Positions 20,599-57,535 of a stretch of 64,000 bases of DNA are shown one piece after another. The notes beneath the pieces are model-generated. The model worked only from the letters and a program-made list of their open reading frames with translations. It was not told the origin of the DNA and did not search any database. How positions within the stretch are numbered: position 1 is the first letter of the stretch; every line of letters starts with the position of its first letter. The stretch covers positions 39,549,860 through 39,613,859 of the forward strand of contig OZ023274.1 in NCBI GenBank assembly GCA_964007475.1. The letters are read 5' to 3'. The stretch comes from Hybos culiciformis. Lineage: Eukaryota > Arthropoda > Insecta > Diptera > Hybotidae. Made by a program: the position numbers and the translations under genes.

Positions 20599-20602
20599 AT
20601 AG

Positions 20603-26352: not shown

Positions 26353-26436
26353 CTAATAATAATTGTAACAACGGTAACCACGGTAACCACGGAAACCACC
26401 TCCACGATATCCTCGTCCACGAAAATTTCGTCCAAA
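26353..26436 (-). pseudogene. RGG/RGY-rich protein remnant
   Basis: The minus strand reads FGRNFRGRGYRGGGF followed by RGYRGYRCYNYY and a stop, a glycine/arginine/tyrosine-rich tail as found in RNA-binding RGG proteins. It is about 27 codons. An in-frame TAA sits directly upstream, preceded by YSSFS. No start or splice acceptor is visible. The tandem CGGTAACCA word could alternatively be a simple repeat, but the codon pattern favours a decayed exon. Confidence 0.45.
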
Positions 26437-26564
26437 TTATGAAAAAGAGCTATATGATTAGATAATATTATTCTCCTATTAGTTACATAGCTAAAATTTT
26501 TATTCTAGATTTTCGAAAATTTATCAAATTTTAACGTCACTTCAAAATCACATACCATTAATAT

Positions 26565-27225
26565 GGTGAACTGACATAACCGCGAAAAATTTTTGTCATA
26601 ACCGCGAAACTAGAATTTGTATGAGCGAATTCGCGGTTATGACAAAAAAATTTAAGTTTTTCGCGGTTATAACAAAAATTTTTGTTATAACCGCGAAACA
26701 CAAAAATTCGATTTTTGTCATTTCGCGGTTATAACAATAATTTTTGTTATAACCGTGAAACACAAAAATTCGATATTTTTCATTTCGCGGTTATAACAAA
26801 AATTTTTGTTATAACCGCGAAATGATAAAAAAACGAATTTTTGTGTTTCGCGGTTGTAACAAAAATTTTTGTTATAACCGCGAAATGATAAAAATTGGTT
26901 TTTTGTGTTTCGCGGTTATAACAAAAATTTTTGTTATAACCGCGAAAAACAAAAATTCGTTTTTTGTCATTTCGCGGTTATAACAAAAATTTTTGTTATA
27001 ACCGCGAAATGATAAAAATCGAAATTTTTTGTTTCGCGGTTATAACAAAAATTTTTGTTATAACCGCGAAACGAAATTTTTTCAATTTTTTGCCATATTT
27101 TTTCGCGGTTATGACAAAAAAATATATAAGACATTTTTCGCGGTTATGACACTTTTATTTTTTATTTCGCGGTTATGACAAAAAAGTTTCGCGATTATGA
27201 CATTCGCGGTTATGTCATGTAGCCC
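26565..27225. mobile_element. Palindromic array element of TTCGCGGTTATAAC words, copy A
   Basis: 661 bp flanked by a perfect 8-bp duplication (ATTAATAT at 26557-26564 and 27226-27233). Ends are GGTGAACTGACATAACCGCG and, on the opposite strand, GGGCTACATGACATAACCGC. The interior is a run of perfect 38- to 40-bp palindromes (TTCGCGGTTATAACAAAAAT and its mirror) separated by short AT spacers such as ACACAAAAATTCG. Reading frames across it are repeat artefacts. A larger copy is at 33011-34316 in the opposite orientation. Confidence 0.85.
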
Positions 27226-27462
27226 ATTAATATTAGGCACAATTTTATCTTCAAAATAATTATTATTAGATGATTAAAATATAACAAACCCAAAAGCTTT
27301 ATTATTAAATAATGAAAAAACATAAGGACATTATTATGAGAAATAATAAAAATTGATAAGATCACGTAACTAATGTCCACAATATAAAAATAAACTAGAA
27401 ATCATTTTTTTTAAAATATGACATTTTACCTTTGAACCACAAGAGTAAATAAAATATAATGT

Positions 27463-28006
27463 TTAAGAGCCCTAAATGTGAAAAATTGCAAAAAATTGGT
27501 CTTAGTTTGTCTTTGTAGGGTTACTACAATCTAGACTGAAGTGATTTTTTGATATGTTAGAAAGTTTATAACTGGCTCCAGGTAGGTGAGGCGGATTTTT
27601 TAAATTTTGAGTTTTTTGGCCCAAATGAGCCTTTAAAAAACTCGAACATATATGCTTGGATTCTGAAGTAAAGGAAAAAGATAATAAAAAATCTCAATCG
27701 CAGAAATAAAGCTAAAATACCACTCTCCAGGGCTGGTGACGTGAAATTTTGAATTTCTTTTATTTCCTAAACAATTTTTAATTAATTTCATTTATTTCTA
27801 AGAATTGTTTGATTTTTTTGATAAATTACAGTTTCTGCACAGAAATAAAATTCAAATATAGTTTTGTGATTTTCTGGTAGAGGTGTTTTTCGTACAATTT
27901 TTGTCGCATTTTTCACGGCCGTTTATTTTCTGTAAAATAAAACAAAAAAAACTGCAAAAATAGAAAACTGAAATAGAAAACAGAATTTCACATGGAGGGC
28001 TCTTAA
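27463..28006 (+). mobile_element. TTAA-flanked MITE, copy 2
   Basis: Starts TTAAGAGCCCTAAATGTGAA and ends with the mirrored GGAGGGCTCTTAA. Same family as 24735-25283 and 57014-57535. It lies 237 bp from array element A. No coding capacity is seen. Confidence 0.85.
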
Positions 28007-28407
28007 ATATAATAAAAAATTCGAAAATAAACACAAACAATTTATTCTGATTTTTAAGTAAGTGAACCTTGGTTATAAGAAAAACGATATTTTAAATTTT
28101 ACAGGTAGATGATGCTGACAAAGCGAAAGAAAACTTCCTTATTTTCAACATTCATAAGAATGTTGGCTATCTCAAAAGCAAAAAAATTCATATATATAGA
28201 ATTCACTAGTTGAGATTTTATAATTCTTTGCAAGGCTCAAACATATTGATGACGGACAACTTTTTTAATAACGTAATATTTCTATGAGACAAAAAATATT
28301 AAAAATTAATAAAGTATTGAAATCAAAATAATTTGTTTTCAAAATAAATTTACATGTATATATTTTAAATAATTATATTATTATTATATTATTACATAAT
28401 ATTTTTT
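28007..28407. other. AT-rich non-genic DNA
   Basis: No gene seen between the MITE and the coiled-coil pseudogene. Confidence 0.5.
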
Positions 28408-32885: not shown

Positions 32886-33010
32886 ATATATATATATACA
32901 TATATTTATTTTTTACCTACATAATCTATATTAGAAAAAAATAAAAAAAATTTCCTACGAAAATAAAATTTCCGTATGCTTTAATATTTTCTTCATGGTA
33001 TACATAATGT

Positions 33011-34316
33011 GGGCTACATGACATAACCGCGAATGTCATAACCGCGAAACTTTTTTGTCATAACCGCGAAATAAAAAATAAAAGTGTCATAACCGCGAAA
33101 AATTTCTTATATTTTTTTTTGTCATAACCGCGAAAAAATATGGCAAAAAATTTAAAAAATTTCGTTTCGCGGTTATAACAAAAATTTTTGTTATAACCGC
33201 GAAACACAAAATTTCGATTTTTATCATTTCGCGGTTATAACAAAAATTTTTGTTATAACCGCGAAATGACAAAAATCGAATTTTTGTGTTTCGCGGTTAT
33301 AACAAAAATTTTTGTTATAACCGCGAAACACAAAAAATCAATTTTTATCATTTCGCGGTTATAACAAAAATTTTTGTTATAACCGCGAAACACAAAAACT
33401 CGATCATTTTGAAAAATGAAATAAGACCTCGATAAAAAAATGTTGTGTGGTAAGCACACAGGAGGGGGGGGCAGCAGGGCGGCGGGCGGGCGGTTGGTCA
33501 GTGGGATTTGCGGCTGGCGCCGCAAATCCCACTGACCAACCGCCCGCCCGCCGCCCTGCTGCCCCCCCCTTCCGTGTGCTTACCAGACCTCGAAAGAAAA
33601 ATGTTGTGGGATAAGCACACGGAGGGGGGGCAGCAGGGCGGCGGGCGGGCGGTTGGTCAGTGGGATTTGCGGCTGCCGCCGCAATTCCCACTGATCAACC
33701 GCCCACCCGCCGCCCTGCTGCTCCCCCTCCGTGTGCTTACCTCACAACATTTTTTTATCGAGGTCTTATTACATTTTTCAAAATGATCGAGTTTTTGTGT
33801 TTCGCGGTTATAACAAAAATTTTTGTTATAACCGCGAAAATTCGATTTTTGTGTTTCGCGGTTACAACAAAAATTTTTGTTATAACCGCGAAATGAAAAA
33901 AATCGAATTTTTGTGTTTCGCGCTTATAACAAAAATTTTTGTTATAACCGCGAAATGAAAAAAATCGAATTTTTGTGTTTCGCGGTTATAACAAAAATTT
34001 TTGTTATAACCGCGAAATGACAAAAATCGAATTTTTGTGTTTCGCGGTTATAACAAAAATTTTTGTTATAACCGCGAAACACAAAAATTCGATTTTTATC
34101 ATTTCGCGGTTATAACAAAAATTTTTGTTATAACCGCGAAAAACTTAACATTTTTTTTGTCATAACCGCGAATTCGCGGTTATGACAAAAATAAAATTAG
34201 TTTCGCGGTTATAACAAAAATTTTTGTTATAACCGCGAAACTCATACAAATTCTAGTTTCGCGGTTATGACAAAAATTTTTCGCGGTTATGACATTCGCG
34301 GTTATGTCAGTTCACC
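33011..34316. mobile_element. Palindromic array element of TTCGCGGTTATAAC words, copy B, with GC-rich apex
   Basis: 1306 bp; ends GGGCTACATGACATAACCGC and GCGGTTATGTCAGTTCACC; flanked by a 7-bp repeat ATAATGT (33004-33010 and 34317-34323), which becomes 8 bp if the shared C is counted. It contains about a dozen perfect 38- to 40-bp palindromes on either side of a central 370-bp GC-rich insert (33411-33780). The flanks of that insert are themselves mirror images (CTCGATCATTTTGAAAAATG). The whole element is a palindrome made of palindromes. Frames crossing it are artefacts of the repeat. Confidence 0.85.
33411..33780. repeat. Double GC-rich palindrome (CAGCAGGGCGGCGGGCGG core)
   Basis: Two tandem inverted repeats, each with GGCAGCAGGGCGGCGGGCGG, GGTTGGTCAGTGGGATTTGC and their mirrors, bordered by TAAGCACACGGAGGGG and CCTCCGTGTGCTTA. 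The outer borders are ATGAAATAAGACCTCGATAA and the mirrored CGAGGTCTTATT. It is far richer in GC than the surrounding DNA. Related cores are at 4138-4275 and 23190-23280. Proline/arginine-rich frames read from it are not genes. Confidence 0.85.
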
Positions 34317-35114
34317 ATAATGTGTATATATGTATATCTTTACAACAGTATTATAAATGTGTATATTATATTAAAATTTATTCTAAAAGCTATGATAAAG
34401 TTAATAATTTATTAGAAAAAGGAAATCAGTAAGGTTGTGTATACAAAGTTCTCGAAAGATAAGTTATAAATTTTCATTCAAATGTATGTATAGAGGCATT
34501 GAGTTTTCTCATAATATTTTAAATAAAATTACTTAATTTGTAGAAATCCATCTACAAATTTCAATATAGATAAGGGAGAGGCTTCCAGGTTGCCACCCCA
34601 TAGCTTTTTTATCATAACTCGTCAAAAAATGAACGTATTGTACAAGAAGTATATGCGTTGGAAAGAGGAAGAAAAAAACTACAATCCTGGCCTAGAAATC
34701 ATTTGAAATCTCAAAAAATAAAAATTCTATAGGAAATTTTTAAAATTATCTAAAATCGAACTCTTCAAATTTAGGCTTACAGGTTGCCACCCTTTGGAAA
34801 ATTGCTGAAAATGCTGAAAAACTGAAACTGAAAAATGTCTCATTTAGAAATGTTTTCAAATTTATTGAATTTCACTTGCATCCAGTGGCTGTAAACATAA
34901 AGAAATGACTGAAAATTGACATAAAAAATAAAATTGCAATATAGTATGGAATCATTCCAAATCTTCATCGGACTCAGAATTCGGTCAAGTTTAAACACTG
35001 AAACACATTTTGCGTGAACGGCTCTTCTGAATTTGTGTCACATAATAGAGTTGTGTCTACTTCGGACATTTTCTTCAAAAAATCATACAGTCATTAGTGG
35101 TTTCATCAAGGTGG

Positions 35115-35118
35115 CAAC
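35115..35118. repeat. Target-site duplication of the giant LTR element (left)
   Basis: CAAC, repeated at 51752-51755 directly after the right LTR. A 4-bp duplication is usual for Ty3-type integration. Confidence 0.8.
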
Positions 35119-35444
35119 TGTTACGGTGAAAAATCTGTATAAATTTTTTGGTACACCTAATAAAAAATTAAAATAATTTTGACAAAAAAAATCTAAGTTT
35201 TTACTTTTGCGAAGCAAAGCAATTTTTTTTTATAGGTCAGAAATCAATTTTTTTTTACGCAGAATATTGAACTGCATTTACCTTTTTTGTATGAATTAAA
35301 AGAAAAAAAAAAAAAAAAAATGCATTGTAAAAATCATATATAAATCAATGCATTTTCAATAACATTTTCATGTTAAATTCAAACTTAAATCAAAAAAGGT
35401 AAATAAATGTTTAACGTTTATGCTTTTTACCCTTTTTCTTTAGG

Positions 35445-35847
35445 TGCTGGAATGGTCTTCTGAAGCCTAGCGGGATTAATCCCACTGGCTAAGGATAACC
35501 AGACCAGCAGAGATTTACTAGACAGAGAGTCAAAGAATGCCTCGTCTAGTAAAACTCACAAGCCAGCGCTTAGCTGAGGATTCTTGGGCCTATCCAGGAA
35601 TCCTAAGCTAAGACTTACCAGTCACCACATGGACTCCGAAAGGAAATCCATCCAACGTTGTGGTGCTACAATTGTCCCCCTTGTCCACCTCGTTTGAATT
35701 CAAAACTCATGAGAACGATAATTTGAATTCAAACCAGGTGAACAGGAGAGAACAATTGTAGAGGATGACCGTCACCAGGCGTTCCCTACCACAACCAATA
35801 CGCGCGGTACCCGGTTGAGATAGGAACGAGTAAAACAGCCCTGTGAC
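35445..35847 (+). ncRNA. Six consecutive stem-loops in the 5' LTR
   Basis: Stem 1: TGCTGG/CCAGCA with an inner hairpin GGGATTAATCCC (35445-35508). Stem 2: TTTACTAGAC/GTCTAGTAAA, 10 bp perfect (35514-35553). Stem 3: CTTAGCTGAGGATTCTTGG with CCAGGAATCCTAAGCTAAG (35569-35612). Stem 4: CACCACA/TGTGGTG with ATGGA/TCCAT (35623-35665). Stem 5: CTACAATTGT/ACAATTGTAG, then CACCT/AGGTG, then a 13-bp GTTTGAATTCAAA/TTTGAATTCAAAC stem (35666-35761). Stem 6: GTCACCAGG with CCCTGTGAC, and an inner GTTCC/GGAAC stem (35771-35847). The block is much less AT-rich than its flanks and encodes no protein. A structured RNA is the simplest reading. Its role (packaging, translation, cleavage) is unknown. Confidence 0.75.
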
Positions 35848-37310
35848 AGTACATCCGACTGGCCTTCTTCAAAATACTAAATTTCCAATTTAAAAAAAAA
35901 AAAAAAAAAATACTAACCACCCAAAATTAGCCAAAAACAAGCCATAAAAATTTTTTTTACAAAAGATAAAAAATAATAAAAAAATTGAAAAACCATAATT
36001 TTTCCCGTTTTTAAAAAAAAAAAAAAAAAACAGTCTGTTTCAAAAATAAATTCAAGGTGGAAAAATTAAAATTTCCCTTTTCAAAAGTTCACTACAGAAT
36101 TCAACACAAATTTTTTTAAACAAAAATCAAATGATTTTGTTTTCAAATTCAGAGAGAAGCTGACTTATCAGCTGAATAAAACTTAAACAATAAAAAAAAA
36201 AAAAAATCTTAAAAATAAAAAAAAAAAAAATAAAAAATAAAACCATTCACCGGTGATTCACCCTTCCTTTGGTTGGTCATCGCATCTTATTGTAAGGCAC
36301 TACTCCAAAGATGACAACCTAAAAAGAGAAAAATTCTTGTTGTTTCCGTGTTGACACCTTCACCTAAAAATATAAAAATTGCATTAGAAATAAAATAAAA
36401 TAAAAAAAAAAAAAAAATATCAATTAAAAGATAGTTAAAATTTTTATAAATTATCCCTCCTTTTTTTAAATTACGAAGATTTCAAAATTTTAACTCAATC
36501 TCTATCATAAAAATTTTTTGAGAAAAACTTCCAATACAACAAAAAAAAAAAAAATATTTTTTTCTGTAATGATTTCTTAAAATAAATAATTTCGCCAAGA
36601 ATTTTTTTTACACCCTAATAAATTCCAACCCAGATATTTTTTGGTATAAAATACTTACCTACTTTAAAGTTATGATGACTAGGTAAATATTATTAATAAA
36701 TCTGTGTTCAAAAGTCTAAACGTCTTAAGTAATGATAAGACAAAATTGAGATAATATTTTATTGTGCTTGTGGAAAATAATATTAAGTATACAAAAAAAA
36801 AAAAAAACGAAAAACGTCTTATTTGCTTCTTATTCAAATAACAGAAGTTTAAACTAATAATTTGATAATTTATAAACAAAAAAAAAAAAAACGGAAACCA
36901 AATTTGTTCTGAAAACTTTTCTAAACAAATTTCATTTTTTACAAACACATTTTTTGTAATTTAAAAATTTTATTTCGCTCTAACTCAAAACAAAGATTTT
37001 GCAGATAAAACGTTCTGCCTTTTGAACGCAGAAATAATATTTATTTTTCCTAAAAATTTAGTTAAAAGGCTTGAATATGCCGGTAAGATGTATAATGAAT
37101 ACAAATTACATAAATATTGAAAAAAAAAAAAAAAAAAAAAGAAAAACATAGAACATTTCGTTTTCCAAAACTTGAATCTGTTGAAGAATTCTGGACATTC
37201 ATTAAAATTGATTGAAATCCCTTTTTTTTTTAAAAAAATAAAAAAATTTTCAGCCTATAATATCAAAATAAACCCTTTACATGCCGGTAATAGGGCAGAC
37301 TACCTTATTT

Positions 37311-38222
37311 CATGGTGTCCACTTTTTTTAAAAAGATCGTTTTCCATGACTTTTCATGATTTTCCAGCCACAAAAAAAAAAAAAAAAATTGTTTCCAGAT
37401 AAGAATTGATATAATATATATTTTTATTTTGTTAAAATTATTTAAATTGTGAAATTAATTTTTTTACATTTTTGAAGTCTTGGCTTACATGGTAGAAATA
37501 ATCGTATAGCCAGGAGTTTTAATTTTAAATTAAATTATTAATTATATTTTTACATTTTTACAAGAAATTCGCCGAGAAATTTCAGTTTTAAGTTTAATTT
37601 TTCAGCTGCCATGGCTTCAAATTTAACTTTTTTTCTCTTCAATTATTTTTTTTATTTCCTCATCTTTTCGTCTTTTAAGCACTTTTCTTCATTTTTAATA
37701 CGCTGTGCCACTAATGAGTTCTTATATAAGTTTTCTACCAATAGTGATTTAATTACGAAAAATCCGATTTCTACTGACGCATTTCCATGAGAAAAAAATT
37801 AGACAAACCTTTAGAATTTTACATAGGTTTTTATATGATGAATGAATTCCAATTAAAGAAAAATAAAAACTGTCTAATCCAGAATCAGGTTCAAATTCTT
37901 TTAAATATTCACGGAAATCATCGTAAAAAACTATTTTTGACTCACAGCAAAGTTTGGAAAATTCCTTTTGTGCTGATCCGGCTTCAGACGTGCACGATTC
38001 TTTTCTAGTTTAATAATAAGCGCAGGTGCATATAGAATGGAACACATCGTAAAAATAGCATACTTTAAAAATGCGATAATTTTAGTTAAATAGTAGATGA
38101 GAAACAGAAATTAATAAGGATTTTTCCAGTTAAATTTCCAAATTCAATGACTTTCCCATGACCATATTTTTTCCCATGACTTTCAAGGTTTTACCATGAC
38201 TTTCCAGAGAGTGGCTACGCTG
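37311..38222 (-). mobile_element. hAT-like relic nested in the 5' LTR
   Basis: Begins CATGGTGTCCACTTTTT and, on the opposite strand, CAGCGTAGCCACTCTCT. It has inward copies of CCATGACTTTTCATGA-type words and is flanked by TATTT. The minus strand carries a decayed transposase-like C terminus: SHGNASVEIGFFVIK, then LLVENLYKNSLVAQR, near 37680-37790, with EFEPDSGLDSFYFSL upstream in another frame. The H-G-N-A-x-V-E-x-G-F motif recurs in hAT-like proteins of insects as I know them. An identical copy sits at 47008-47919 in the other LTR, so it was already in the element when the element last moved. Confidence 0.6.
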
Positions 38223-41049
38223 TATTTAGTTTAAAATACTGGTGTAACCAACCTAAAATTTTTAAAAACCAAACTATATTTTTAATATTGGCACACAAAA
38301 AAAAAAAAAATTACAAAATTTTTACCCTCCAATAATAAAGTTTACCTGAAACTATTCTGAATCAGGACATGGAAAAAGTGCTCCTGATGGTATTGGAAAC
38401 ACTATCAAACCAATGACTGATAAAAATAGTATCTCAAGGGTATGATCTACCTGATCTCAAATCGCAAAAGAAAAACAATTTTGCTCAGATATAAAAATAT
38501 TTGAAGTAACTTCTTCAAATATAGATAAAATAACTTCTGATATCTGGACAAAAAGACCAAGGTTCAAGAATTTTATATAAATTCTTAGACCAACTTGAAG
38601 CAAAAGAGCTTTAAAATAAAATTAAAATTTTTTACATTCATTCACCTGTATTTTCAAATTTTTAAAATGCAAAATTTTAAATAATAAAATAAACAATACT
38701 TACCAAAAAAAAAATAGATAATCCCAATGCACTTTCATTAAATTATATTTTTTTTCTTCCTTTTAGCCATAAAATTAATTAAATAAATTTTAAAAATTAA
38801 AAAAATAATTAAAAAAATTTTGGCTTACTTTTCACGATCACATTTTTTCTTTTTTGATAGCCATTTTCTTAATGTCAAATGACATTAACTGCGCGATCAA
38901 TAATTTTAGCCACCGGCGCACAACAAAAATTCACAATAGATAAAATATTGTGAAGGGGAATGTTTATACGAATTTTTTTAAAATAAAAATCATATTTAAA
39001 CCATGGATCGAATTTAAATGTTATATTTGTTTTGAAAAAATAAATATAAATATTTATATTTGTTTTCTGAAATATAAATATGTATTTGTCTATATATTTA
39101 TTTTTGTATTTTATTTTTAAAAATAAATATCACCAGAAAAATCTGTAAGAAATAGCAGAACTTTAATACAAACAATATTAAAAATCGTTTCAACCACCTT
39201 GTTATTAATATTGAGGACAGCATTAGTTAACATTAAAATTAATTATTTAACTTTAAAAAAAAAAATATATATATATTAATTTTGTTTTTAAATTTTAAAA
39301 ATTTATTGAATTTTCAAAATCAATTTCTACGATTATTATTGGATTAAATTTAATCAACTAAAATAAAATAATAAAAATATTGATGCCGGAACCAAAACTA
39401 AAATCAATATTTGTTGCGAAAACATGAATTACGATCTTAATTTTTATTTTTGACTTCGACACAACAAAAGGTTTCATTTTGTATTTTATAATAAAACTAC
39501 AGATTTCTGTTTTTCTGTTTGAATCTGCGAAAAATATTTATATTTTAACATTAGAAAATAAATATAAATTTATATTTTCAAGTTTGTTTCAAGAAATAGA
39601 TATACGTTTTTATAAATATCCGAAAATAAGAATTATTTTACAAAAAAAACATATAGATATTATGAAAAGACATAAAACTTAATTATGTAAACTTTTAAAA
39701 ATATTTTAGTGTATCTAAAAATAAAAAAAAAAAAAAAAAGATAATAAAAAATAAAAAGAATAAAGAATTAGAAAAAATTTACATTTCCTTACATGCCACC
39801 TTTCTTTCGATCTTTAACTTAAAACTGACAAACTACCTAGTTCATCATTGTGAATAAAATCGTGTTTACTATTTTATCTTAAGGTCCATTTATACCTTTT
39901 AAATTTTTTATCAAATCAAAAAAAAAAAAAATAAAATTGAAATCTTGTTGAACATGATGAAACTGTTGAATACCTTTATGATAATTCTTTTTCTTACAGT
40001 TAAATGAAATACGATTTTCTATGTTTAAATATTAATTTGCTATTCTTTTATTAATTAATTTATTTAATACTTTTATTAAATAAAATATTACTTCAATATG
40101 ATTGCGTGATTGAACTTGATAATTTGGATGATGAGATGATAATGAAAGAATGATAATAATGATAATACATAATAATTATTAATAAATAAGAATCAGTGAG
40201 TTAGATTAGAGTGACTCAAGTTGAATGATCACAGCTTCTTATACCTATAAAGCTTTGGATGCAATAAGATTATTTGTTTAACAGAAACAACTTTGTTACT
40301 TTCTACTTAGCGATAAACATTTTTTCCTTTTACTTACCTGTAAAATTCATAGGTGTTAGAAATTCAAATAAAATATAATAAATTAGATCTTCTTTTTATG
40401 TTTTAAGTAAACTTTTATTTCAAATTTTTATATTTTTTTAAAATTGGATAAATTATGAATGTAATTTTGTGAATTTAAATTACAATATAGTAAATGGATT
40501 CAAAAATAGTATAATATAAAATTACAAATTTGCAATTAATTTAATTTCAGTAATTTATAACTTGTGTATTTTGTAATTTGTAACTTAAATTACATTCACA
40601 TGTATTTTACCCGGCTATGATAAAAACTAATTCTAATTTTGACAATAGAAATAAACTATAACATAAAAAATTTTCCTATACGAATTAAAATTCAATTAAT
40701 GTGACTTATAACAAATCAATTAATAACAATAAGGACCAGAAATATTGGATGATCCCAATAAAAATCAAAAAAAAAAAAAAGAGTATATATATATCCGCAA
40801 AAACGCATAATATAATACTTTATACATATTTTTACACAACATTTTACACAACATAAATTTATCTTATAGAAAAATTAATTATTTTATAAGAAAATTAAAT
40901 TTTTTTAAACTATTATTATAAAATAAATAAAAAAATTGTCTAATAGTAATAAGAATTTTTTTTAAACACATAAATTTTTATGGCTTGTTAGGCAGATTTC
41001 TAAGTAGTTATAATTTGAAAATATAATCTATCACTAACATACAATTCTA

Positions 41050-41080
<31 letters not shown>

Positions 41081-41781
41081 AATAAAAAAAAAAAAAAAAC
41101 TTTTTTTTTCATGTTAAATTCAAACTTAAATCAAAAAAGATGTTACAAAATTGTTAACAAAACAAAAACAAGATACATCAAACCAGATTGGCAACTCAAA
41201 TAAAGTGCCCCGCTAGTGTTATTATCAACCAGAAATAACCAATCTAGCAGCCTTCAGATTACGCATCTGACACACCAAATAAGACCTCATTTAAGTAGGC
41301 ATAACCATTTAAGAAAAGCTTGTTTATATATATATATATGTATATAAAAATTATACACATAGTATTTAACAAAATTGTGGTTTTGTATAAAAAAAAAAAC
41401 AAAAACAAAAAACAAAAAGGATCATGTATGTTGAATCCTAAAACATAGTCTTTTACAAATTATAAGAAACGAATATTGTATTTAAATCGATGAGTAATAC
41501 ATCAATGAACATCAATTTTTATAATTTTATTATCTAAGTTTTTTTTAGTTTCTTTGTTAAATAAAATAATAATATTTGTAAAAATATAAACCATGTTTTA
41601 CTAAAATTATTCCCCTAGGTCCTAACAGGTATTAAGAAATGTAGATGTAAGATCCGGCTATAGGTGGCAGAAGCCACGTGCCGAAGAATGACTCCATAGT
41701 CATTTAATCTTTAATCTATTTGGTTTGGTCGGGGTTTCTAAAGTATTTTTTTTTATTTTTTGATCTCTCTTTTTTTTTAAA

Positions 41782-41898
41782 GACATCCTATAAATTTTGT
41801 TACACTACCACTGGTGTTCACTGTCGCTTACCCACCCAACGACGAGCTCAGACCCGGCCTATGAACAGGATGTCATAAGACAGTGGACTCGACACCAG
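41782..41898 (+). ncRNA. Crossing stems (pseudoknot-capable) near the LTR 3' end
   Basis: Stem A pairs GACATCCT (41782-41789) with AGGATGTC (41867-41874). Stem B pairs CTGGTGT (41811-41817) with ACACCAG (41892-41898), and CACTGTC (41819-41825) with GACAGTG (41879-41885). The stems interleave, so they form either a pseudoknot or a switch. Downstream hairpins GAAAGTAGAA/TTCTACTTTC (41910-41940) and GAGTTCA-TCT-TGAACTC (41981-41997) flank the AATAAA. CCTATAAATTTTG (41787-41799) could be a TATA element. The same structure is at 51479-51595. Confidence 0.6.
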
Positions 41899-41965
41899 CT
41901 TAAAATTTAGAAAGTAGAACTTTTCTTTGCTTCTACTTTCACTAATTTCTCTTATCATAAGATAT

Positions 41966-41971
41966 AATAAA
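41966..41971 (+). terminator. Candidate polyadenylation signal in the LTR
   Basis: AATAAA about 85 bp before the LTR end, between two hairpins, where the R/U5 end of a retroelement transcript is expected. Chance occurrence is common in this composition. Confidence 0.35.
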
Positions 41972-42056
41972 CTTTTTCATGAGTTCATCTTGAACTCAGA
42001 ATTTCTGTATTTATATACACCCCCCGTTCTACTCAAAATAATTAATCAGTAACAAA

Positions 42057-42071
42057 TGGCGCCCAACGTGG
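42057..42071 (+). other. tRNA-Lys primer binding site
   Basis: TGGCGCCCAACGTGG, 15 nt, starting 2 bp after the LTR, is complementary to the 3' end of animal tRNA-Lys including CCA. The position and the TGG start are those of a minus-strand primer site. The match stops after 15 nt. Confidence 0.93.
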
Positions 42072-42321
42072 TAAGACATTGAGTCCTACCCTACCAAAGG
42101 AGTAGCAAGACTTTCGAGTCTCTACTCTTTGAAAAATTGTAAGGCAAAACTCCTTACACGACCATAAATTTTTTTTTAAAGAACGTAAGTTTTTATAAAA
42201 AAAAAAAAAAAAAAAAAATAAATAGTTTAAGTATATATATTTTTTTTTAACCTACATGTTTTAGGAACCCCAAAACCAAAGTAAATAGCTCTATTAAAAC
42301 TAACATTTCATACATATTAGA

Positions 42322-43088
42322 AGAAACTTTTCACCTTGCAGTGTGAGTGCAGTCTAAAAAGTAGGCACGGTCTACACTGTACATGCTGGGGTGAAATGTT
42401 TCTAAAAATATTATCTGTTTTCTAACCTATAAAACTTTTTATTACTTCTAACACGGTTCTCTTTTGACTTTTCTTACAGTGTGAGTGCAGTTTGAAAGGT
42501 AGTCACGGGCTACCCTGTACATGCTGAGAATAAGTCTTAAGATAACCGTAACATCTTTTCCTTCAAAAAAACGAACAAAATCAACATCGTTCAGTGTGAG
42601 TGCAGTCTAAAATGTAGGCACAGTCTACACTGTACATGCTGCGATTTTGATTTTCAGTACCTGCAAAACAGGCACAGTTTCGTTTCGATGGTTTACCTTG
42701 CAGTGTGAGTTCAGCACAGTCCACACTGTTGATGCTGGGGTAACCAGTCGAAATTGAAACTAAAACCACAAGTACAGTTTTCAGTTATCTTGTTACCTAT
42801 TCTTGCAGTGTGAGTGCAGTATAAAATGTGGGCTCAGTCCACACTGTACATGCTGGGAATAGATAATAGTAGATACTATTAACATCTTTTTCTTCAAAAA
42901 CAAAAAAAAAAATCGTACAGTGCGAGTTCAGTATAAAATGTGGGCACAGTCCACACTGAACGTGCTGCGATTTTGATTTTCAGTACTAGTAAAACAGGTA
43001 CAAAATTTCGTTTCGATGGTTTACCTTGCAGTGTGAGTTCAGCACAGTCCACACTGTTGATGCTGGGGTAACCAGTCGAAATTGAAAC
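42322..43088 (+). repeat. Seven-hairpin array with conserved core and variable complementary stems
   Basis: Seven units at 42322-42403, 42461-42541, 42577-42654, 42676-42761, 42794-42865, 42905-42980 and 43006-43088. Each has the core CAGTGTGAGT-(G/T)-CAG ... ACACTG-N-AC/GA-TGCTG. Outside the core the flanks differ between units yet are self-complementary. Examples are AGAAAC-TTTCACC with GGTGAAA-GTTTCT (unit 1), GACTT-TTCT with AGAA-AAGTC (2), AAAATCAACATCG with CGATTTTGATTTT (3 and, shorter, 6), TTTCGA-GGTT-ACC with GGTAACC-TCGAAA (4, 7) and ACCTATTC with GAATAGAT (5). The inner hairpin also varies in step: GTAG/CTAC becomes GTGG/CCAC. Units 3-4 and 6-7 are a duplicated pair. Position right after the primer site suggests packaging or dimerisation; hairpin-derived small RNAs are another option. 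Confidence 0.8.
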
Positions 43089-43099
43089 TAAAACCACTT

Positions 43100-44417
43100 T
43101 CTATATTTCAATCTATCCCTTCTTTTTTCTAATAAATAGAGCTAACTATACATTCTCTTTTCTCTATCTAAAATTTTTCTTTACTAATAAACTTACATCA
43201 AGCATTTCTTATATCTAATTAAGGACCTTAATAAAAACAAAAAAAAAAAGAAACAAATAATGTAGTTTTAAATTTTATTTTGTAATAATAAACCAATTTT
43301 TTTTATTTGTAACTGTAAAAAAAAAAAAAAAATATTTTTTATAAAAAGTGGACCTCTAAAGACGGTTTACTAGTTACAACAATCAAGAAAAATTTAAATT
43401 TGTATTTTTATTAAAAAAAAAAAAATATATATATATACATAAAAAATAACAAATTAGAAAAAATATATGTATATATATTATATAATGTATACATATTATA
43501 TAATGTATACATAAATAAAACAAAAGATTATAAACCTAAACAAAAAAATTGAAAAATTTTGTTTAGCAAAAACGAAAATTTAGTCAAAAGACCACTATTG
43601 CAAATTTTTAAATTTAAAAGAGAAAATTTGAAAAATAATAATTGTAATAGAAAAATTAAAATAAATAAATAAATTTTTCATTAGAACATAAGAATCAAAC
43701 ATGATTTTATTTTTCTTGAGAAAAAAAAAATCCTAATAGTTTTTTAAAAAAATTTAAAAAAAAAAAAAGAGAAAAATTTTTAAAATCATTAATGTTTTTT
43801 TTTACATAAAAATGTCCCAAATAAACATGTGAACCTAGTACTAGTACAATCGAATTCTGAGTATGACAAACTACAGATTTCATTGACAAATTGATTGAAA
43901 TAATTAGTGAAACGGCCGACCCGATTTCACAATTTAAATTGACACTCCAGAGATAATTCTCTCCGGATGAAACAATACTTAGTTAGTTCCACTCTTTACG
44001 AATGAAAGAAGTTATAGAACTAACTATTTAAGCAATCTTCAGCAGATGAAGAAAGGCACTCTTAAAAAAGTCAATGCACCATAAAAATAATTTATGGAAA
44101 AATCTAAGATTTCTCATACTAGATTCGATTTGTATAAATGACCATTTTAAAATTTGAGACATTCTATAAGAAAAAAAATGAAGTTAATTTAAAATTAATA
44201 ATAATTTCAAATTAGATTTTATTAATTTTTTTACTATATTAAAAAAAAAAAAAAAAAAAATTATAAGGAAATAATAATCTTATATAAGAAAATAAAAATC
44301 TTATAGTAGATGTAATAACGTTTACAATAACAGATTATAAAATCGAAAAATTTAATTTATCAAAAACAAAAAAATATTGAAATAAATAAATAATGAAAAA
44401 AAAATATCTTTGTAAAA

Positions 44418-44449
<32 letters not shown>

Positions 44450-44671
44450 ATATAAAAAAATATATATATATATATTATATAAATATATATTATGTAGTTT
44501 TAAGTTTATAAAAATTGTAAAAACCATTATAAAAATTGATCAAAACAAGTAAAATTTTAAAATAAAACAATACATAACATACATATAATTACGTATACAC
44601 ACATAACATACATATTATATAAGAAGAGAAATAAAATTTAATTCGTTTTTTTAAATAAATACATTTTTTTT
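43100..44671 (+). other. Non-coding interior of the giant element
   Basis: A-rich sequence with runs of A and AT dinucleotides (for example 43421-43510 and 44420-44490). It holds no frame longer than about 60 codons on the sense strand and nothing resembling Gag or Pol. Short TATATAATGTATACATATTA-type palindromes are present. Confidence 0.6.
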
Positions 44672-44734
44672 GCCCGGCTAGCTCAGTCGGAAGAGCATGA
44701 GACTCTTATCTCAGGGTCGGTTTCAAGCCCCACT
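44672..44734 (+). pseudogene. tRNA-Lys(CUU)-derived sequence before the 3' LTR
   Basis: GCCCGGCTAGCTCAGTCGG followed by AAGAGCATGAGACTCTTATC matches the first half of animal tRNA-Lys(CUU) almost base for base. It lacks one A in the anticodon loop, has lost three bases before the T arm, has a damaged B box (GGTTTCAAGCC) and lacks the acceptor 3' strand. The A box (TAGCTCAGTCGG) is intact. It lies about 80 bp before the 3' LTR of an element primed by tRNA-Lys. It could be a captured primer, a Pol III relic or chance. Confidence 0.85.
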
Positions 44735-44816
44735 TTCTTTCTCAATCAAAATTTTTTCTTTCACCAGTTTTCTAGCTTCAATCCACTATTTGTAATGAGT
44801 GCGATTGAACCTAATT
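44735..44816 (+). other. 3' end of the interior, no evident polypurine tract
   Basis: The bases before the 3' LTR read GAGTGCGATTGAACCTAATT. No run of purines is present where plus-strand priming normally starts. Either the tract is atypical or this end was rearranged. Confidence 0.6.
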
Positions 44817-45142
44817 TGTTACGGTGAAAAATCTGTATAAATTTTTTGGTACACCTAATAAAAAATTAAAATAATTTTGACAAAAAAAATCTAAGTTTTT
44901 ACTTTTGCGAAGCAAAGCAATTTTTTTTTATGGGTCAGAAATCAATTTTTTTTTACGCAGAATATTGAACTGCATTTACCTTTTTTGTATGAATTAAAAG
45001 AAAAAAAAAAAAAAAAAATGCATTGTAAAAATCATATATAAATCAATGCATTTTCAATAACATTTTCATGTTAAATTCAAACTTAAATCAAAAAAGGTAA
45101 ATAAATGTTTAACGTTTATGCTTTTTACCCTTTTTCTTTAGG

Positions 45143-45545
45143 TGCTGGAATGGTCTTCTGAAGCCTAGCGGGATTAATCCCACTGGCTAAGGATAACCAG
45201 ACCAGCAGAGATTTACTAGACAGAGAGTCAAAGAATGCCTCGTCTAGTAAAACTCACAAGCCAGCGCTTAGCTGAGGATTCTTGGGCCTATCCAGGAATC
45301 CTAAGCTAAGACTTACCAGTCACCACATGGACTCCGAAAGGAAATCCATCCAACGTTGTGGTGCTACAATTGTCCCCCTTGTCCACCTCGTTTGAATTCA
45401 AAACTCATGAGAACGATAATTTGAATTCAAACCAGGTGAACAGGAGAGAACAATTGTAGAGGATGACCGTCACCAGGCGTTCCCTACCACAACCAATACG
45501 CGCGGTACCCGGTTGAGATAGGAACGAGTAAAACAGCCCTGTGAC
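45143..45545 (+). ncRNA. Six consecutive stem-loops in the 3' LTR
   Basis: Second copy of the block at 35445-35847. I saw no difference within the stems. Confidence 0.75.
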
Positions 45546-47007
45546 AGTACATCCGACTGGCCTTCTTCAAAATACTAAATTTCCAATTTAAAAAAAAAAA
45601 AAAAAAAATACTAACCACCCAAAATTAGCCAAAAACAAGCCATAAAAATTTTTTTTACAAAAGATAAAAAATAATAAAAAAATTGAAAAACCATAATTTT
45701 TCCCGTTTTTAAAAAAAAAAAAAAAAACAGTCTGTTTCAAAAATAAATTCAAGGTGGAAAAATTAAAATTTCCCTTTTCAAAAGTTCACTACAGAATTCA
45801 ACACAAATTTTTTTAAACAAAAATCAAATGATTTTGTTTTCAAATTCAGAGAGAAGCTGACTTATCAGCTGAATAAAACTTAAACAATAAAAAAAAAAAA
45901 AAATCTTAAAAATAAAAAAAAAAAAAATAAAAAATAAAACCATTCACCGGTGATTCACCCTTCCTTTGGTTGGTCATCGCATCTTATTGTAAGGCACTAC
46001 TCCAAAGATGACAACCTAAAAAGAGAAAAATTCTTGTTGTTTCCGTGTTGACACCTTCACCTAAAAATATAAAAATTGCATTAGAAATAAAATAAAATAA
46101 AAAAAAAAAAAAAATATCAATTAAAAGATAGTTAAAATTTTTATAAATTATCCCTCCTTTTTTTAAATTACGAAGATTTCAAAATTTTAACTCAATCTCT
46201 ATCATAAAAATTTTTTGAGAAAAACTTCCAATACAACAAAAAAAAAAAAAATATTTTTTTCTGTAATGATTTCTTAAAATAAATAATTTCGCCAAGAATT
46301 TTTTTTACACCCTAATAAATTCCAACCCAGATATTTTTTGGTATAAAATACTTACCTACTTTAAAGTTATGATGACTAGGTAAATATTATTAATAAATCT
46401 GTGTTCAAAAGTCTAAACGTCTTAAGTAATGATAAGACAAAATTGAGATAATATTTTATTGTGCTTGTGGAAAATAATATTAAGTATACAAAAAAAAAAA
46501 AAAACGAAAAACGTCTTATTTGCTTCTTATTCAAATAACAGAAGTTTAAACTAATAATTTGATAATTTATAAACAAAAAAAAAAAAAACGGAAACCAAAT
46601 TTGTTCTGAAAACTTTTCTAAACAAATTTCATTTTTTACAAACACATTTTTTGTAATTTAAAAATTTTATTTCGCTCTAACTCAAAACAAAGATTTTGCA
46701 GATAAAACGTTCTGCCTTTTGAACGCAGAAATAATATTTATTTTTCCTAAAAATTTAGTTAAAAGGCTTGAATATGCCGGTAAGATGTATAATGAATACA
46801 AATTACATAAATATTGAAAAAAAAAAAAAAAAAAAAAAAAAAACATAGAACATTTCGTTTTCCAAAACTTGAATCTGTTGAAGAATTCTGGACATTCATT
46901 AAAATTGATTGAAATCCCTTTTTTTTTTAAAAAAATAAAAAAATTTTCAGCCTATAATATCAAAATAAACCCTTTACATGCCGGTAATAGGGCAGACTAC
47001 CTTATTT

Positions 47008-47919
47008 CATGGTGTCCACTTTTTTTAAAAAGATCGTTTTCCATGACTTTTCATGATTTTCCAGCCACAAAAAAAAAAAAAAAAATTGTTTCCAGATAAG
47101 AATTGATATAATATATATTTTTATTTTGTTAAAATTATTTAAATTGTGAAATTAATTTTTTTACATTTTTGAAGTCTTGGCTTACATGGTAGAAATAATC
47201 GTATAGCCAGGAGTTTTAATTTTAAATTAAATTATTAATTATATTTTTACATTTTTACAAGAAATTCGCCGAGAAATTTCAGTTTTAAGTTTAATTTTTC
47301 AGCTGCCATGGCTTCAAATTTAACTTTTTTTCTCTTCAATTATTTTTTTTATTTCCTCATCTTTTCGTCTTTTAAGCACTTTTCTTCATTTTTAATACGC
47401 TGTGCCACTAATGAGTTCTTATATAAGTTTTCTACCAATAGTGATTTAATTACGAAAAATCCGATTTCTACTGACGCATTTCCATGAGAAAAAAATTAGA
47501 CAAACCTTTAGAATTTTACATAGGTTTTTATATGATGAATGAATTCCAATTAAAGAAAAATAAAAACTGTCTAATCCAGAATCAGGTTCAAATTCTTTTA
47601 AATATTCACGGAAATCATCGTAAAAAACTATTTTTGACTCACAGCAAAGTTTGGAAAATTCCTTTTGTGCTGATCCGGCTTCAGACGTGCACGATTCTTT
47701 TCTAGTTTAATAATAAGCGCAGGTGCATATAGAATGGAACACATCGTAAAAATAGCATACTTTAAAAATGCGATAATTTTAGTTAAATAGTAGATGAGAA
47801 ACAGAAATTAATAAGGATTTTTCCAGTTAAATTTCCAAATTCAATGACTTTCCCATGACCATATTTTTTCCCATGACTTTCAAGGTTTTACCATGACTTT
47901 CCAGAGAGTGGCTACGCTG
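47008..47919 (-). mobile_element. hAT-like relic nested in the 3' LTR
   Basis: LTR-mate of the relic at 37311-38222, with the same ends, flanking TATTT and decayed transposase words. Confidence 0.6.
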
Positions 47920-50746
47920 TATTTAGTTTAAAATACTGGTGTAACCAACCTAAAATTTTTAAAAACCAAACTATATTTTTAATATTGGCACACAAAAAAA
48001 AAAAAAATTACAAAATTTTTACCCTCCAATAATAAAGTTTACCTGAAACTATTCTGAATCAGGACATGGAAAAAGTGCTCCTGATGGTATTGGAAACACT
48101 ATCAAACCAATGACTGATAAAAATAGTATCTCAAGGGTATGATCTACCTGATCTCAAATCGCAAAAGAAAAACAATTTTGCTCAGATATAAAAATATTTG
48201 AAGTAACTTCTTCAAATATAGATAAAATAACTTCTGATATCTGGACAAAAAGACCAAGGTTCAAGAATTTTATATAAATTCTTAGACCAACTTGAAGCAA
48301 AAGAGCTTTAAAATAAAATTAAAATTTTTTACATTCATTCACCTGTATTTTCAAATTTTTAAAATGCAAAATTTTAAATAATAAAATAAACAATACTTAC
48401 CAAAAAAAAAATAGATAATCCCAATGCACTTTCATTAAATTATATTTTTTTTCTTCCTTTTAGCCATAAAATTAATTAAATAAATTTTAAAAATTAAAAA
48501 AATAATTAAAAAAATTTTGGCTTACTTTTCACGATCACATTTTTTCTTTTTTGATAGCCATTTTCTTAATGTCAAATGACATTAACTGCGCGATCAATAA
48601 TTTTAGCCACCGGCGCACAACAAAAATTCACAATAGATAAAATATTGTGAAGGGGAATGTTTATACGAATTTTTTTAAAATAAAAATCATATTTAAACCA
48701 TGGATCGAATTTAAATGTTATATTTGTTTTGAAAAAATAAATATAAATATTTATATTTGTTTTCTGAAATATAAATATGTATTTGTCTATATATTTATTT
48801 TTGTATTTTATTTTTAAAAATAAATATCACCAGAAAAATCTGTAAGAAATAGCAGAACTTTAATACAAACAATATTAAAAATCGTTTCAACCACCTTGTT
48901 ATTAATATTGAGGACAGCATTAGTTAACATTAAAATTAATTATTTAACTTTAAAAAAAAAAATATATATATATTAATTTTGTTTTTAAATTTTAAAAATT
49001 TATTGAATTTTCAAAATCAATTTCTACGATTATTATTGGATTAAATTTAATCAACTAAAATAAAATAATAAAAATATTGATGCCGGAACCAAAACTAAAA
49101 TCAATATTTGTTGCGAAAACATGAATTACGATCTTAATTTTTATTTTTGACTTCGACACAACAAAAGGTTTCATTTTGTATTTTATAATAAAACTACAGA
49201 TTTCTGTTTTTCTGTTTGAATCTGCGAAAAATATTTATATTTTAACATTAGAAAATAAATATAAATTTATATTTTCAAGTTTGTTTCAAGAAATAGATAT
49301 ACGTTTTTATAAATATCCGAAAATAAGAATTATTTTACAAAAAAAACATATAGATATTATGAAAAGACATAAAACTTAATTATGTAAACTTTTAAAAATA
49401 TTTTAGTGTATCTAAAAATAAAAAAAAAAAAAAAAAGATAATAAAAAATAAAAAGAATAAAGAATTAGAAAAAATTTACATTTCCTTACATGCCACCTTT
49501 CTTTCGATCTTTAACTTAAAACTGACAAACTACCTAGTTCATCATTGTGAATAAAATCGTGTTTACTATTTTATCTTAAGGTCCATTTATACCTTTTAAA
49601 TTTTTTATCAAATCAAAAAAAAAATAAATAAAATTGAAATCTTGTTGAACATGATGAAACTGTTGAATACCTTTATGATAATTCTTTTTCTTACAGTTAA
49701 ATGAAATACGATTTTCTATGTTTAAATATTAATTTGCTATTCTTTTATTAATTAATTTATTTAATACTTTTATTAAATAAAATATTACTTCAATATGATT
49801 GCGTGATTGAACTTGATAATTTGGATGATGAGATGATAATGAAAGAATGATAATAATGATAATACATAATAATTATTAATAAATAAGAATCAGTGAGTTA
49901 GATTAGAGTGACTCAAGTTGAATGATCACAGCTTCTTATACCTATAAAGCTTTGGATGCAATAAGATTATTTGTTTAACAGAAACAACTTTGTTACTTTC
50001 TACTTAGCGATAAACATTTTTTCCTTTTACTTACCTGTAAAATTCATAGGTGTTAGAAATTCAAATAAAATATAATAAATTAGATCTTCTTTTTATGTTT
50101 TAAGTAAACTTTTATTTCAAATTTTTATATTTTTTTAAAATTGGATAAATTATGAATGTAATTTTGTGAATTTAAATTACAATATAGTAAATGGATTCAA
50201 AAATAGTATAATATAAAATTACAAATTTGCAATTAATTTAATTTCAGTAATTTATAACTTGTGTATTTTGTAATTTGTAACTTAAATTACATTCACATGT
50301 ATTTTACCCGGCTATGATAAAAACTAATTCTAATTTTGACAATAGAAATAAACTATAACATAAAAAATTTTCCTATACGAATTAAAATTCAATTAATGTG
50401 ACTTATAACAAATCAATTAATAACAATAAGGACCAGAAATATTGGATGATCCCAATAAAAATCAAAAAAAAAAAAAAGAGTATATATATATCCGCAAAAA
50501 CGCATAATATAATACTTTATACATATTTTTACACAACATTTTACACAACATAAATTTATCTTATAGAAAAATTAATTATTTTATAAGAAAATTAAATTTT
50601 TTTAAACTATTATTATAAAATAAATAAAAAAATTGTCTAATAGTAATAAGAATTTTTTTTAAACACATAAATTTTTATGGCTTGTTAGGCAGATTTCTAA
50701 GTAGTTATAATTTGAAAATATAATCTATCACTAACATACAATTCTA

Positions 50747-50777
<31 letters not shown>

Positions 50778-51478
50778 AATAAAAAAAAAAAAAAAACTTT
50801 TTTTTTCATGTTAAATTCAAACTTAAATCAAAAAAGATGTTACAAAATTGTTAACAAAACAAAAACAAGATACATCAAACCAGATTGGCAACTCAAATAA
50901 AGTGCCCCGCTAGTGTTATTATCAACCAGAAATAACCAATCTAGCAGCCTTCAGATTACGCATCTGACACACCAAATAAGACCTCATTTAAGTAGGCATA
51001 ACCATTTAAGAAAAGCTTGTTTATATATATATATATGTATATAAAAATTATACACATAGTATTTAACAAAATTGTGGTTTTGTATAAAAAAAAAAACAAA
51101 AACAAAAAACAAAAAGGATCATGTATGTTGAATCCTAAAACATAGTCTTTTACAAATTATAAGAAACGAATATTGTATTTAAATCGATGAGTAATACATC
51201 AATGAACATCAATTTTTATAATGTTATTATCTAAGTTTTTTTTAGTTTCTTTGTTAAATAAAATAATAATATTTGTAAAAATATAAACCATGTTTTACTA
51301 AAATTATTCCCCTAGGTCCTAACAGGTATTAAGAAATGTAGATGTAAGATCCGGCTATAGGTGGCAGAAGCCACGTGCCGAAGAATGACTCCATAGTCAT
51401 TTAATCTTTAATCTATTTGGTTTGGTCGGGGTTTCTAAAGTATTTTTTTTTATTTTTTGATCTCTCTTTTTTTTTAAA

Positions 51479-51595
51479 GACATCCTATAAATTTTGTTAC
51501 ACTACCACTGGTGTTCACTGTCGCTTACCCACCCAACGACGAGCTCAGACCCGGCCTATGAACAGGATGTCATAAGACAGTGGACTCGACACCAG
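51479..51595 (+). ncRNA. Crossing stems near the 3' LTR end
   Basis: Second copy of 41782-41898, with both interleaved stems unchanged. In this LTR it would lie at the 3' end of a full-length transcript. Confidence 0.6.
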
Positions 51596-52163
51596 CTTAA
51601 AATTTAGAAAGTAGAACTTTTCTTTGCTTCTACTTTCACTAATTTCTCTTATCATAAGATATAATAAACTTTTTCATGAGTTCATCTTGAACTCAGAATT
51701 TCTGTATTTATATACACCCCCCGTTCTACTCAAAATAATTAATCAGTAACACAACCTGCAAGCCAATAAAGGTGGCAACCTGCATTCTGACGCAATTTTG
51801 TATAATCCATTTAAAAAAATTGCATATTCATAATATATTTTTAATTCTTTTTGGAATATGTTAATTGAATGAAAAAGCAACACAACCCAATTATTTATAT
51901 TGATTTGCTAATAAAAAAGTTCACTTTACGAGCACAGGACAAAAACACAATTTTTAATTTTTAAATTTTTTGAAAATAATAATTCACACTTTGCTCAGTA
52001 TACACTGTGTTATTGCGTCCGTCCGCTGCAAAAGTAGATTAAAAGTGACAACTGTTCTTTTGACGAAGATGTCACTTGGAGTTTAGTTTGTGAGACTGCT
52101 AGAATGTCAAAATACATTAGTGGTGGCAACCTACAAGCAGTGGCAACCGGCAGCCTCTCACCT

Positions 52164-56846: not shown

Positions 56847-57013
56847 AACCACTTTCAAAATCAGTAAAATTACTTTTTTGTTTTTAAAAGTGCATAAGTC
56901 CACTTTGTGTTATTTGTTTAATATTATTATAATTTAATTTTTCTTTTTAATTAAGTTTATATAACTCCAATATATTTGTTTAGTGATTCTTCTAATCTTT
57001 AAATAATTCTTTT

Positions 57014-57535
57014 TTAAGAGCCCTCAATTTGAAAAATTGCAAAAAATTGGTCTTAGTTTGGCTTTTATTGTAGGGTTACTACAATCTAGAAGTGATTTTT
57101 TGATATGTAAGAGAGTATATAACTGGCTCCAGGGTAGGTGAGGCGGATTTTTTTAATTTTGAGTTTTTTGGTCCAAATGAGCCTTTAAAAAACTTGAACA
57201 TATTTGCTTGGATTCTGAAGTAAAGGAAAAAGATAATAAAAAATCTCAAACGCAGAAATAAAGCTAAAATACCACTCTCCAGGGCGGGTGACTTGGAATT
57301 TTGAATTTCTTTAATTTCTTAAACAATTTTTAATTAATTTCATTTATTTCCAAGAATTTTTTAATTTTTTTGATAAATTACAGTTTCTGCACAGAAATAA
57401 AATTCAAATATAGTTTTGTGATTTTCTAGTAGAGGTGTTTTTCGTACAATTTTTATCGCATTTTTCACGGCCGTTTATTTTCTGTAAAATAAAACAAAAA
57501 AATAGAAAAGAGAATTTCAAATGGAGGGCTCTTAA
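57014..57535 (+). mobile_element. TTAA-flanked MITE, copy 3 (nested)
   Basis: Same family as 24735-25283 and 27463-28006. It starts TTAAGAGCCCTCAATTTGAA and ends GGAGGGCTCTTAA. The flanks CTTTTTTAA and TTAAGGTAATTT rejoin to a sequence mirrored uninterrupted in the other arm (AAATTATCTTAAAAAAG near 57863-57879). This empty site confirms the TTAA duplication. Confidence 0.9.

What the first reader, a model, noticed from the sequence alone, without database searches (positions are those of the whole stretch)
35119..51751. Giant non-coding LTR retrotransposon with 6.9-kb LTRs in an animal genome
The LTRs are about 6935 bp each and nearly identical. They carry TG...CA ends, a tRNA-Lys primer site 2 bp inside and a 4-bp CAAC target duplication, yet the element encodes no Gag, Pol or Env. 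Large non-coding LTR elements (LARDs) are known mainly from plants. Few LTRs of this size come to mind in insects. The near identity of the LTRs says it moved recently, so a helper must exist.
Basis: partly seen in the sequence, partly recalled or inferred. Interest (0 to 1): 0.88.

Follow-up and report, generated by a model that had tools for sequence, protein, structure and literature searches.

The report
Non-coding giant-LTR retroelement with likely helper
A 16.6-kb jumping DNA element that encodes no proteins and has exceptionally long end repeats sits in an animal genome, and the same genome holds protein-coding relatives with nearly identical end repeats that probably move it.

Summary
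At 35119-51751 two 6.9-kb LTRs differ by 4 substitutions and 1 gap, with TG..CA ends, a CAAC duplication, a tRNA-Lys primer site 2 nt inside and no coding trace. The predicted helper exists: a copy at C1:136.07-136.09 Mb carries the same 6.9-kb LTR (35 of 6850 sites differ) around gag-, pol- and env-like frames. Seven paired copies share LTR 3' ends at 91-100%, and all four combinations of long/short LTR with coding/non-coding interior occur. Parts have been exchanged between copies, as expected of co-packaged RNAs. The non-coding copies keep a likely cis-signal set: PBS, a leader of 7 hairpins (4 in the C1:136 copy), a tRNA-Lys-like stretch and a terminal hairpin. The long LTR also carries a ~430-nt RNA-like module, shared with sister families, with covariation support. 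It works like mouse ETn/MusD and resembles plant LARDs, but with 6.9-kb LTRs in what is probably an insect: a new variant of a known kind.

The parts
35115..35118 (.). target-site duplication CAAC, left
35119..42054 (+). 5' LTR, 6936 bp
35365..35398 (+). 34-bp direct repeat, left border of the 5.7-kb segment missing from short LTRs (copy in the 3' LTR at 45063-45096)
35433..35864 (+). conserved structured module in the LTR (copy in the 3' LTR at 45131-45562)
   Evidence: alignment and covariation; folding z -11.9; coordinates
41106..41139 (+). 34-bp direct repeat, right border of the same segment (copy in the 3' LTR at 50803-50836)
42055..44816 (+). non-coding interior, 2762 bp
42057..42071 (+). 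primer binding site for tRNA-Lys
   Evidence: tRNA identity from recalled tRNA-Lys 3' end
42309..43095 (+). leader array of 7 hairpins (cores start at 42339, 42477, 42592, 42701, 42806, 42918, 43029)
44672..44733 (+). tRNA-Lys-like stretch without the tRNA 3' end
44772..44813 (+). conserved terminal hairpin just before the 3' LTR, where a polypurine tract would be expected
44817..51751 (+). 3' LTR, 6935 bp
51752..51755 (.). target-site duplication CAAC, right

Best explanation
A non-autonomous LTR retrotransposon that depends on coding, env-bearing Ty3-type siblings in the same genome. Its RNA (about 9.7 kb: interior plus one LTR) would start in the LTR, be packaged by the siblings' Gag through the leader hairpins, be primed by tRNA-Lys, be copied by their Pol and be inserted by their integrase with a 4-bp duplication. 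Shown: architecture, coding siblings with the same LTR and PBS, target duplications, recent insertion, mosaic exchange of parts, pairing-preserving leader hairpins and LTR module. Inferred: transcription, packaging role of the hairpins, use of the siblings' proteins, roles of the tRNA-Lys-like stretch and terminal hairpin. The long LTR is probably the older state; 1.2-kb LTRs arose by loss of 5.7 kb between 34-bp direct repeats.
For: Coding copy with a 6.9-kb LTR differing from the window's at 35 of 6850 sites and frames with RVP, RVT_1, RNase H, H2C2 and rve domains. PBS identical at the 5' LTR ends read apart from the diverged C269 copy beyond the first 18 nt. 4-bp duplications at all 8 copies for which both outer junctions were read. 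All four LTR/interior combinations among 7 pairs. Mosaics. Leader identical in the three non-coding copies (0 of 1146 and 0 of 1143) while the rest of the interior differs at 9 of 1574 between two of them (chance 0.0014).
Against: No transcript, particle or mobilisation data. Only three recent non-coding copies were seen (counts are lower bounds, 40 candidates scored per search). The gag frame is below Pfam cut-offs, the env-like frame has no homologue. The last frame differs between coding copies (226 to 256 aa), so not every coding copy need be functional; none was tested. Leader identity could also come from recent recombination rather than constraint.
Confidence: 0.8

Rival explanations
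1. The non-coding copies are chance internal-deletion derivatives, each moved by ordinary helper proteins, with no cis features beyond LTR and PBS; the hairpins and other modules are passengers.
For: Few copies. Shared leader and 3' stretch are what simple internal replacement would leave.
Against: The interior between leader and 3' end (about 1.5 kb) matches no part of the coding copies by blastn or tblastn, so it is not a plain deletion. The leader array is larger than in coding copies (7 against 4). Leader arms keep pairing despite different sequence.
Confidence: 0.25
2. The tRNA-Lys-like stretch is a relic of an old tRNA-derived insertion without function.
For: In coding copies it is followed by a run of A, its 5' half is missing and its anticodon loop is changed (CCCTAA), which is unlike a functional tRNA mimic. 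No tRNA is recognised by ARAGORN in the window nor by Rfam at gathering score in 8 loci.
Against: It is present at 14 of 14 3' junctions examined (12, one each). All 10 copies aligned share one 2-nt deletion relative to the recalled tRNA, so it is one old event, yet it is still recognisable, with a CTT loop, in a sister family.
Confidence: 0.55
3. Assembly artefact or segmental duplication of one 6.9-kb copy.
For: The two LTRs are 99.93% identical.
Against: Four substitutions and a gap between the LTRs, CAAC on both outer sides, PBS at the inner end, and the same arrangement at other sites with other duplications.
Confidence: 0.03

Closest known systems
ETn/MusD of mouse
   Same: Non-coding LTR element mobilised by a coding relative that shares its ends (PMC6466679, passages).
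   Different: Here a Ty3-type, env-bearing partner; LTRs of 6.9 kb; helper relation inferred, not tested.
LARDs (large retrotransposon derivatives)
   Same: Long LTRs, PBS, long non-coding interior with structured RNA (definition recalled; plant LARD LTRs of about 4.5 kb and interiors of about 3.5 kb are recalled from the 2004 barley work, not read here).
   Different: Probably insect; LTR longer; likely helper identified; both LTR lengths occur with both interiors.
Osvaldo-lineage elements
   Same: tRNA-Lys PBS, mostly 4-bp duplications and long LTRs (997-2137 bp in the Culex table, PMC3286476, passages, section 13 read). One Culex member carries two tRNA-like units, tRNA-Lys and tRNA-Glu, at its PBS.
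   Different: Here the tRNA-Lys-like stretch lies before the 3' LTR and lacks the tRNA 3' end; LTRs reach 6.9 kb. Lineage not tested by a tree.
Ogre (plants) and Burro (planarian)
   Same: Giant Ty3-type elements; Ogre LTRs 1.9-6.5 kb (PMC6431247, passages).
   Different: Those are coding elements; the present LTR is slightly longer than the Ogre range given there.

Membership tests
Non-autonomous LTR retrotransposon (LARD/ETn type) | paired LTRs with TG..CA, PBS and target duplication | tested here: met
Non-autonomous LTR retrotransposon (LARD/ETn type) | no coding capacity | tested here: met
Non-autonomous LTR retrotransposon (LARD/ETn type) | coding relative sharing LTR and PBS | tested here: met
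Non-autonomous LTR retrotransposon (LARD/ETn type) | moved in trans by the relative's proteins | not testable with these tools
   needs a mobilisation experiment
Non-autonomous LTR retrotransposon (LARD/ETn type) | polypurine tract before the 3' LTR | tested here: not met
   longest purine run 3 in 60 nt; a conserved hairpin stands there instead. A second LTR element in the window also lacks a clear tract (run of 4), so this is not taken as excluding membership
Ty3-type (Metaviridae), coding partner | gag, then protease-RT-RNase H-integrase in that order | tested here: met
   pol domains above cut-off in order; gag weak, below cut-off
Ty3-type (Metaviridae), coding partner | envelope gene homologous to a known envelope | tested here: inconclusive
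   envelope-like layout, no homologue
Osvaldo lineage | tRNA-Lys PBS and 4-bp duplication | tested here: met
   criteria from PMC3286476
Osvaldo lineage | LTR about 1-2.1 kb | tested here: inconclusive
   1.2 kb in short forms, 6.9 kb in the window
Osvaldo lineage | position in an RT/integrase tree with named members | not tested
   no named reference sequences held; of the 120 hits listed only 3 carry organism names

The most novel reading that the evidence does not exclude
A retroelement lineage with its own set of cis RNA signals: a tRNA-Lys mimic that helps recruit the primer, a terminal hairpin in place of the polypurine tract for plus-strand start, and a ~430-nt structured element in the LTR that acts on the RNA. 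The non-coding form enlarged its packaging array from 4 to 7 hairpins and so competes with its coding hosts.
Probability: 0.2. Interest if true: 0.85.

Novelty: new variant of a known kind. Interest (0 to 1): 0.6.

Why it matters
It puts a non-coding giant-LTR element and its likely helpers side by side in one animal genome, so that questions usually asked of plant LARDs (which signals suffice, how parasite and helper exchange parts) can be asked by comparison. The covarying LTR module, the tRNA-Lys-like stretch and the terminal hairpin are concrete structures to probe. LTRs of 6.9 kb bring a coding copy to about 24 kb and matter for repeat annotation, since a 5.7-kb non-coding block could be taken for host sequence.

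Tried and rejected
MicroRNA reading of the LTR hairpins: the 4 Rfam matches at E<=1 in 34900-52000 (one place, twice) were MIR5380 (34.2 bits, cut-off 150) and mir-3146 (24.6, cut-off 96), far below threshold; 8 loci gave none at gathering score. A true tRNA gene: ARAGORN found none in the window. Degraded coding sequence in the interior: none found. Folding energy alone as evidence for the leader: rejected, because an AT-rich interior control scored z -6.6 against the leader's -6.7; other controls were -0.3 and -2.7, the LTR 3' block -1.3, the LTR module -11.9. Absence of a polypurine tract as unique: weakened by the second element in the window. Covariation of the terminal hairpin: 2 pairs, reached by 33 of 500 shuffles, inconclusive. 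HA2 similarity of the env-like frame (E 0.07-0.84): not counted as homology. The last frame: no homologue among 647 candidates. Not done: the empty-site search, searches with the unique interior and the tRNA-like stretch, naming the host.

This version gives the intended fields and odds; in the draft the confidence of a rival had landed under the best explanation. In checking I also mended the description of conservation around the LTR module, the origin of letters typed, and several counts.
Full report
What is there. The element spans 35119-51751 (16,633 bp): LTRs of 6936 and 6935 bp around a 2762-bp interior. The LTRs differ at 4 sites and one gap. Ends are TG..CA, the duplication is CAAC and the tRNA-Lys primer site follows a 2-nt spacer. 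No coding trace was found. At a recalled rate of 3e-9 per site per generation the LTR difference corresponds to about 1e5 generations; the host's rate is unknown.

Other copies. The window lies in an assembly of 342 Mb in 509 contigs. Three searches of it were answered, each scoring 40 of 433, 209 and 590 candidates, so counts are lower bounds. With the LTR 3' end, the best 14 of 49 match rows (91-100%) are the LTR pairs of seven elements, none unpaired. Non-coding: the window and C2:92.487-92.505 Mb (long LTRs), and C1:56.014-56.019 Mb (1.2-kb LTRs; interior 97.7% like the window's, gaps counted). Coding: C1:136.070-136.095 Mb (long LTRs), and C2:62.904-62.917 Mb, C41:267-279 kb and C3:42.677-42.694 Mb (1.2-kb LTRs). 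More distant copies lie at C1:89.43, C169, C1:95.02 (an LTR-interior-LTR-interior-LTR array) and elsewhere, and a solo LTR at C1:77.52. Duplications, at the 8 copies with both outer junctions read: CAAC, ATTA, AATT, TTTT, AACT, GAAT, TTTT, AAAT. With the leader, 3 of 50 rows are full length at 100% (the three non-coding copies) and about 20 rows at 77-80% mark a larger sister family.

The likely helper. In the C1:136 copy a 731-aa frame, gag-like but below Pfam cut-offs, overlaps by 34 nt a 1155-aa frame with protease, RT, RNase H and integrase. A third frame crosses two fetched loci, 769 aa by coordinates; pieces were read apart. Its counterpart in C41 (769 aa) has a hydrophobic segment near the N-terminus (windows starting at 25-41), 11 N-glycosylation motifs, a KGKR site at 279, by eye a heptad-rich stretch after it, and a weaker hydrophobic segment at 661. 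That is an envelope-like layout, but none of 7998 scored candidates matched. A last frame (226-256 aa) is also an orphan. The best pol matches are about 50% identical; of the 120 listed (2059 found) only three bear organism names, all flies: Ceratitis, Episyrphus and Scaptodrosophila. The host is therefore probably an insect, but it was not identified.

LTR length. The short LTR equals the long one without 5741 bp between two 34-bp direct repeats. Five more distant LTRs of 2.6-5.9 kb contain the first 490-580 bp of that segment, so the long form is probably older; whether they carry both repeats was not tested. From LTR spacing, RNA lengths would be about 9.7 and 10.5 kb (long LTR, non-coding), 3.9 kb (short, non-coding), 11.6 kb (two of the short coding copies) and 17.5 kb (long, coding). 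RNA size alone therefore does not decide mobility.

Exchange of parts. In the first 178 bp the window equals C1:56, and C1:136 equals C2:62.9 and C3. C2:92.5 is 8.0% from the window but 2.3% from the solo LTR at C1:77.5, although its last 900 bp equal the window's. Such mosaics are the usual trace of template switching between co-packaged RNAs (established for retroviruses, inferred here).

Leader hairpins. The three non-coding leaders have 7 hairpin cores; six of the seven coding leaders scanned have 4 and C169 has 2. Outer arms differ between hairpins yet pair within each: mean -15.7 kcal/mol for own arms and -6.0 for swapped in the window (4 of 5040 arrangements reach the true one; two pairs of units have near-equal 3' arms), and -19.7 against -6.1 in C1:136 (1 of 24). 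I tested 11 of the 21 units listed. Hairpins 2-4 and 5-7 form a 328-bp tandem duplication, 85% matching. The leader is identical in the three non-coding copies, while the rest of the interior differs at 9 of 1574 sites between the window and C1:56. A packaging role is inferred.

LTR module. A stretch of about 430 nt near the LTR start is absent from short LTRs. Against four more distant LTRs, LTR positions 400-600 are 94-95% identical, the neighbouring 200-bp bins 87-89%, and the bin 800-1000 66-73% in three (28 aligned sites in the fourth). It recurs in sister families at 72-90%. On 13 copies chosen from a larger number, the RNAalifold structure of 107 pairs has 96.4% of cells paired (shuffled 93.4, 0 of 500) and 43 cells changed on both sides (15.1 +- 3.1, 0 of 500). 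Twelve pairs change on both sides (8.8 +- 1.5; 21 of 500 reach it), and pair types are not raised (403 of 500). Slid partners give at most 7 such cells. The tool warns that relatedness can beat the shuffles and that a structure derived from the same alignment favours itself over slid versions. The folding z-score is -11.9. Rfam has no match at gathering score in the loci searched. It begins with a splice-acceptor-like TTTTTCTTTAG; a role in export or splicing is speculation.

Before the 3' LTR. There is no polypurine tract; a second LTR element in the window also lacks a clear one. A tRNA-Lys-like stretch of up to 62 nt, without the 3' end that would pair with the PBS, is present at 14 of 14 junctions examined. 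It is nearly complete in the non-coding copies and one sister-family copy, and reduced to its later part in the other ten. The 10 copies aligned share one 2-nt deletion relative to a recalled tRNA-Lys (four of them were cut at their 5' side by my coordinates). In HIV-1 an element mimicking the tRNA-Lys3 anticodon arm binds lysyl-tRNA synthetase (PMC11181671, passages). By analogy this stretch might too, but the coding copies have a changed loop. The last ~40 nt fold into a hairpin in the four sequences folded; covariation there is inconclusive.

Literature. Listings were seen; passages of PMC3286476 (and its section 13), PMC4028053, PMC12992720, PMC6431247, PMC11181671 and PMC6466679. The listings showed me no animal element with LTRs this long, but I opened few of those papers and the library lacks most subscription journals.

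Verdict. Real, recently moved, non-coding, with a likely coding helper: it works like ETn/MusD and looks like a LARD. A new variant of a known kind, interest 0.6.

Noticed in passing
window 15485-20600 (-): A second LTR element with 272-bp repeats at 100% identity and one open 1428-aa frame with SAP, CCHC, RT, RNase H and integrase domains; a SAP domain there is unusual to my knowledge.
   Followed up: partly
window 24734-28007, 33010-34297, 57013-57502: Inverted and dispersed repeats, e.g. a 567-bp inverted pair at 96.6%, and tandem-like units shared between 26.6-27.1 kb and 33.0-34.3 kb.
   Followed up: no
window 21654-22028 (+): Exon-like frame matching the protein kinase domain; resembles Chk2 from memory only.
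   Followed up: no
L027-L029 (C1:95.021-95.050 Mb): LTR-interior-LTR-interior-LTR tandem arrangement of a diverged coding relative.
   Followed up: no
L014:2064-4529 (+): Inside the C3 coding copy a frame with zinc knuckle, protease and part of an RT suggests a nested second retroelement.
   Followed up: no
L042:402-527: A lineage with another LTR start has the same tRNA-Lys-like stretch and the same terminal hairpin type as the C2:92.5 copy, a further sign of part exchange.
   Followed up: partly
L011:698-1375 (-), L014:7372-8139 (+), L018:8131-8808 (-): Orphan last frame of coding copies, differing in length between copies.
   Followed up: partly
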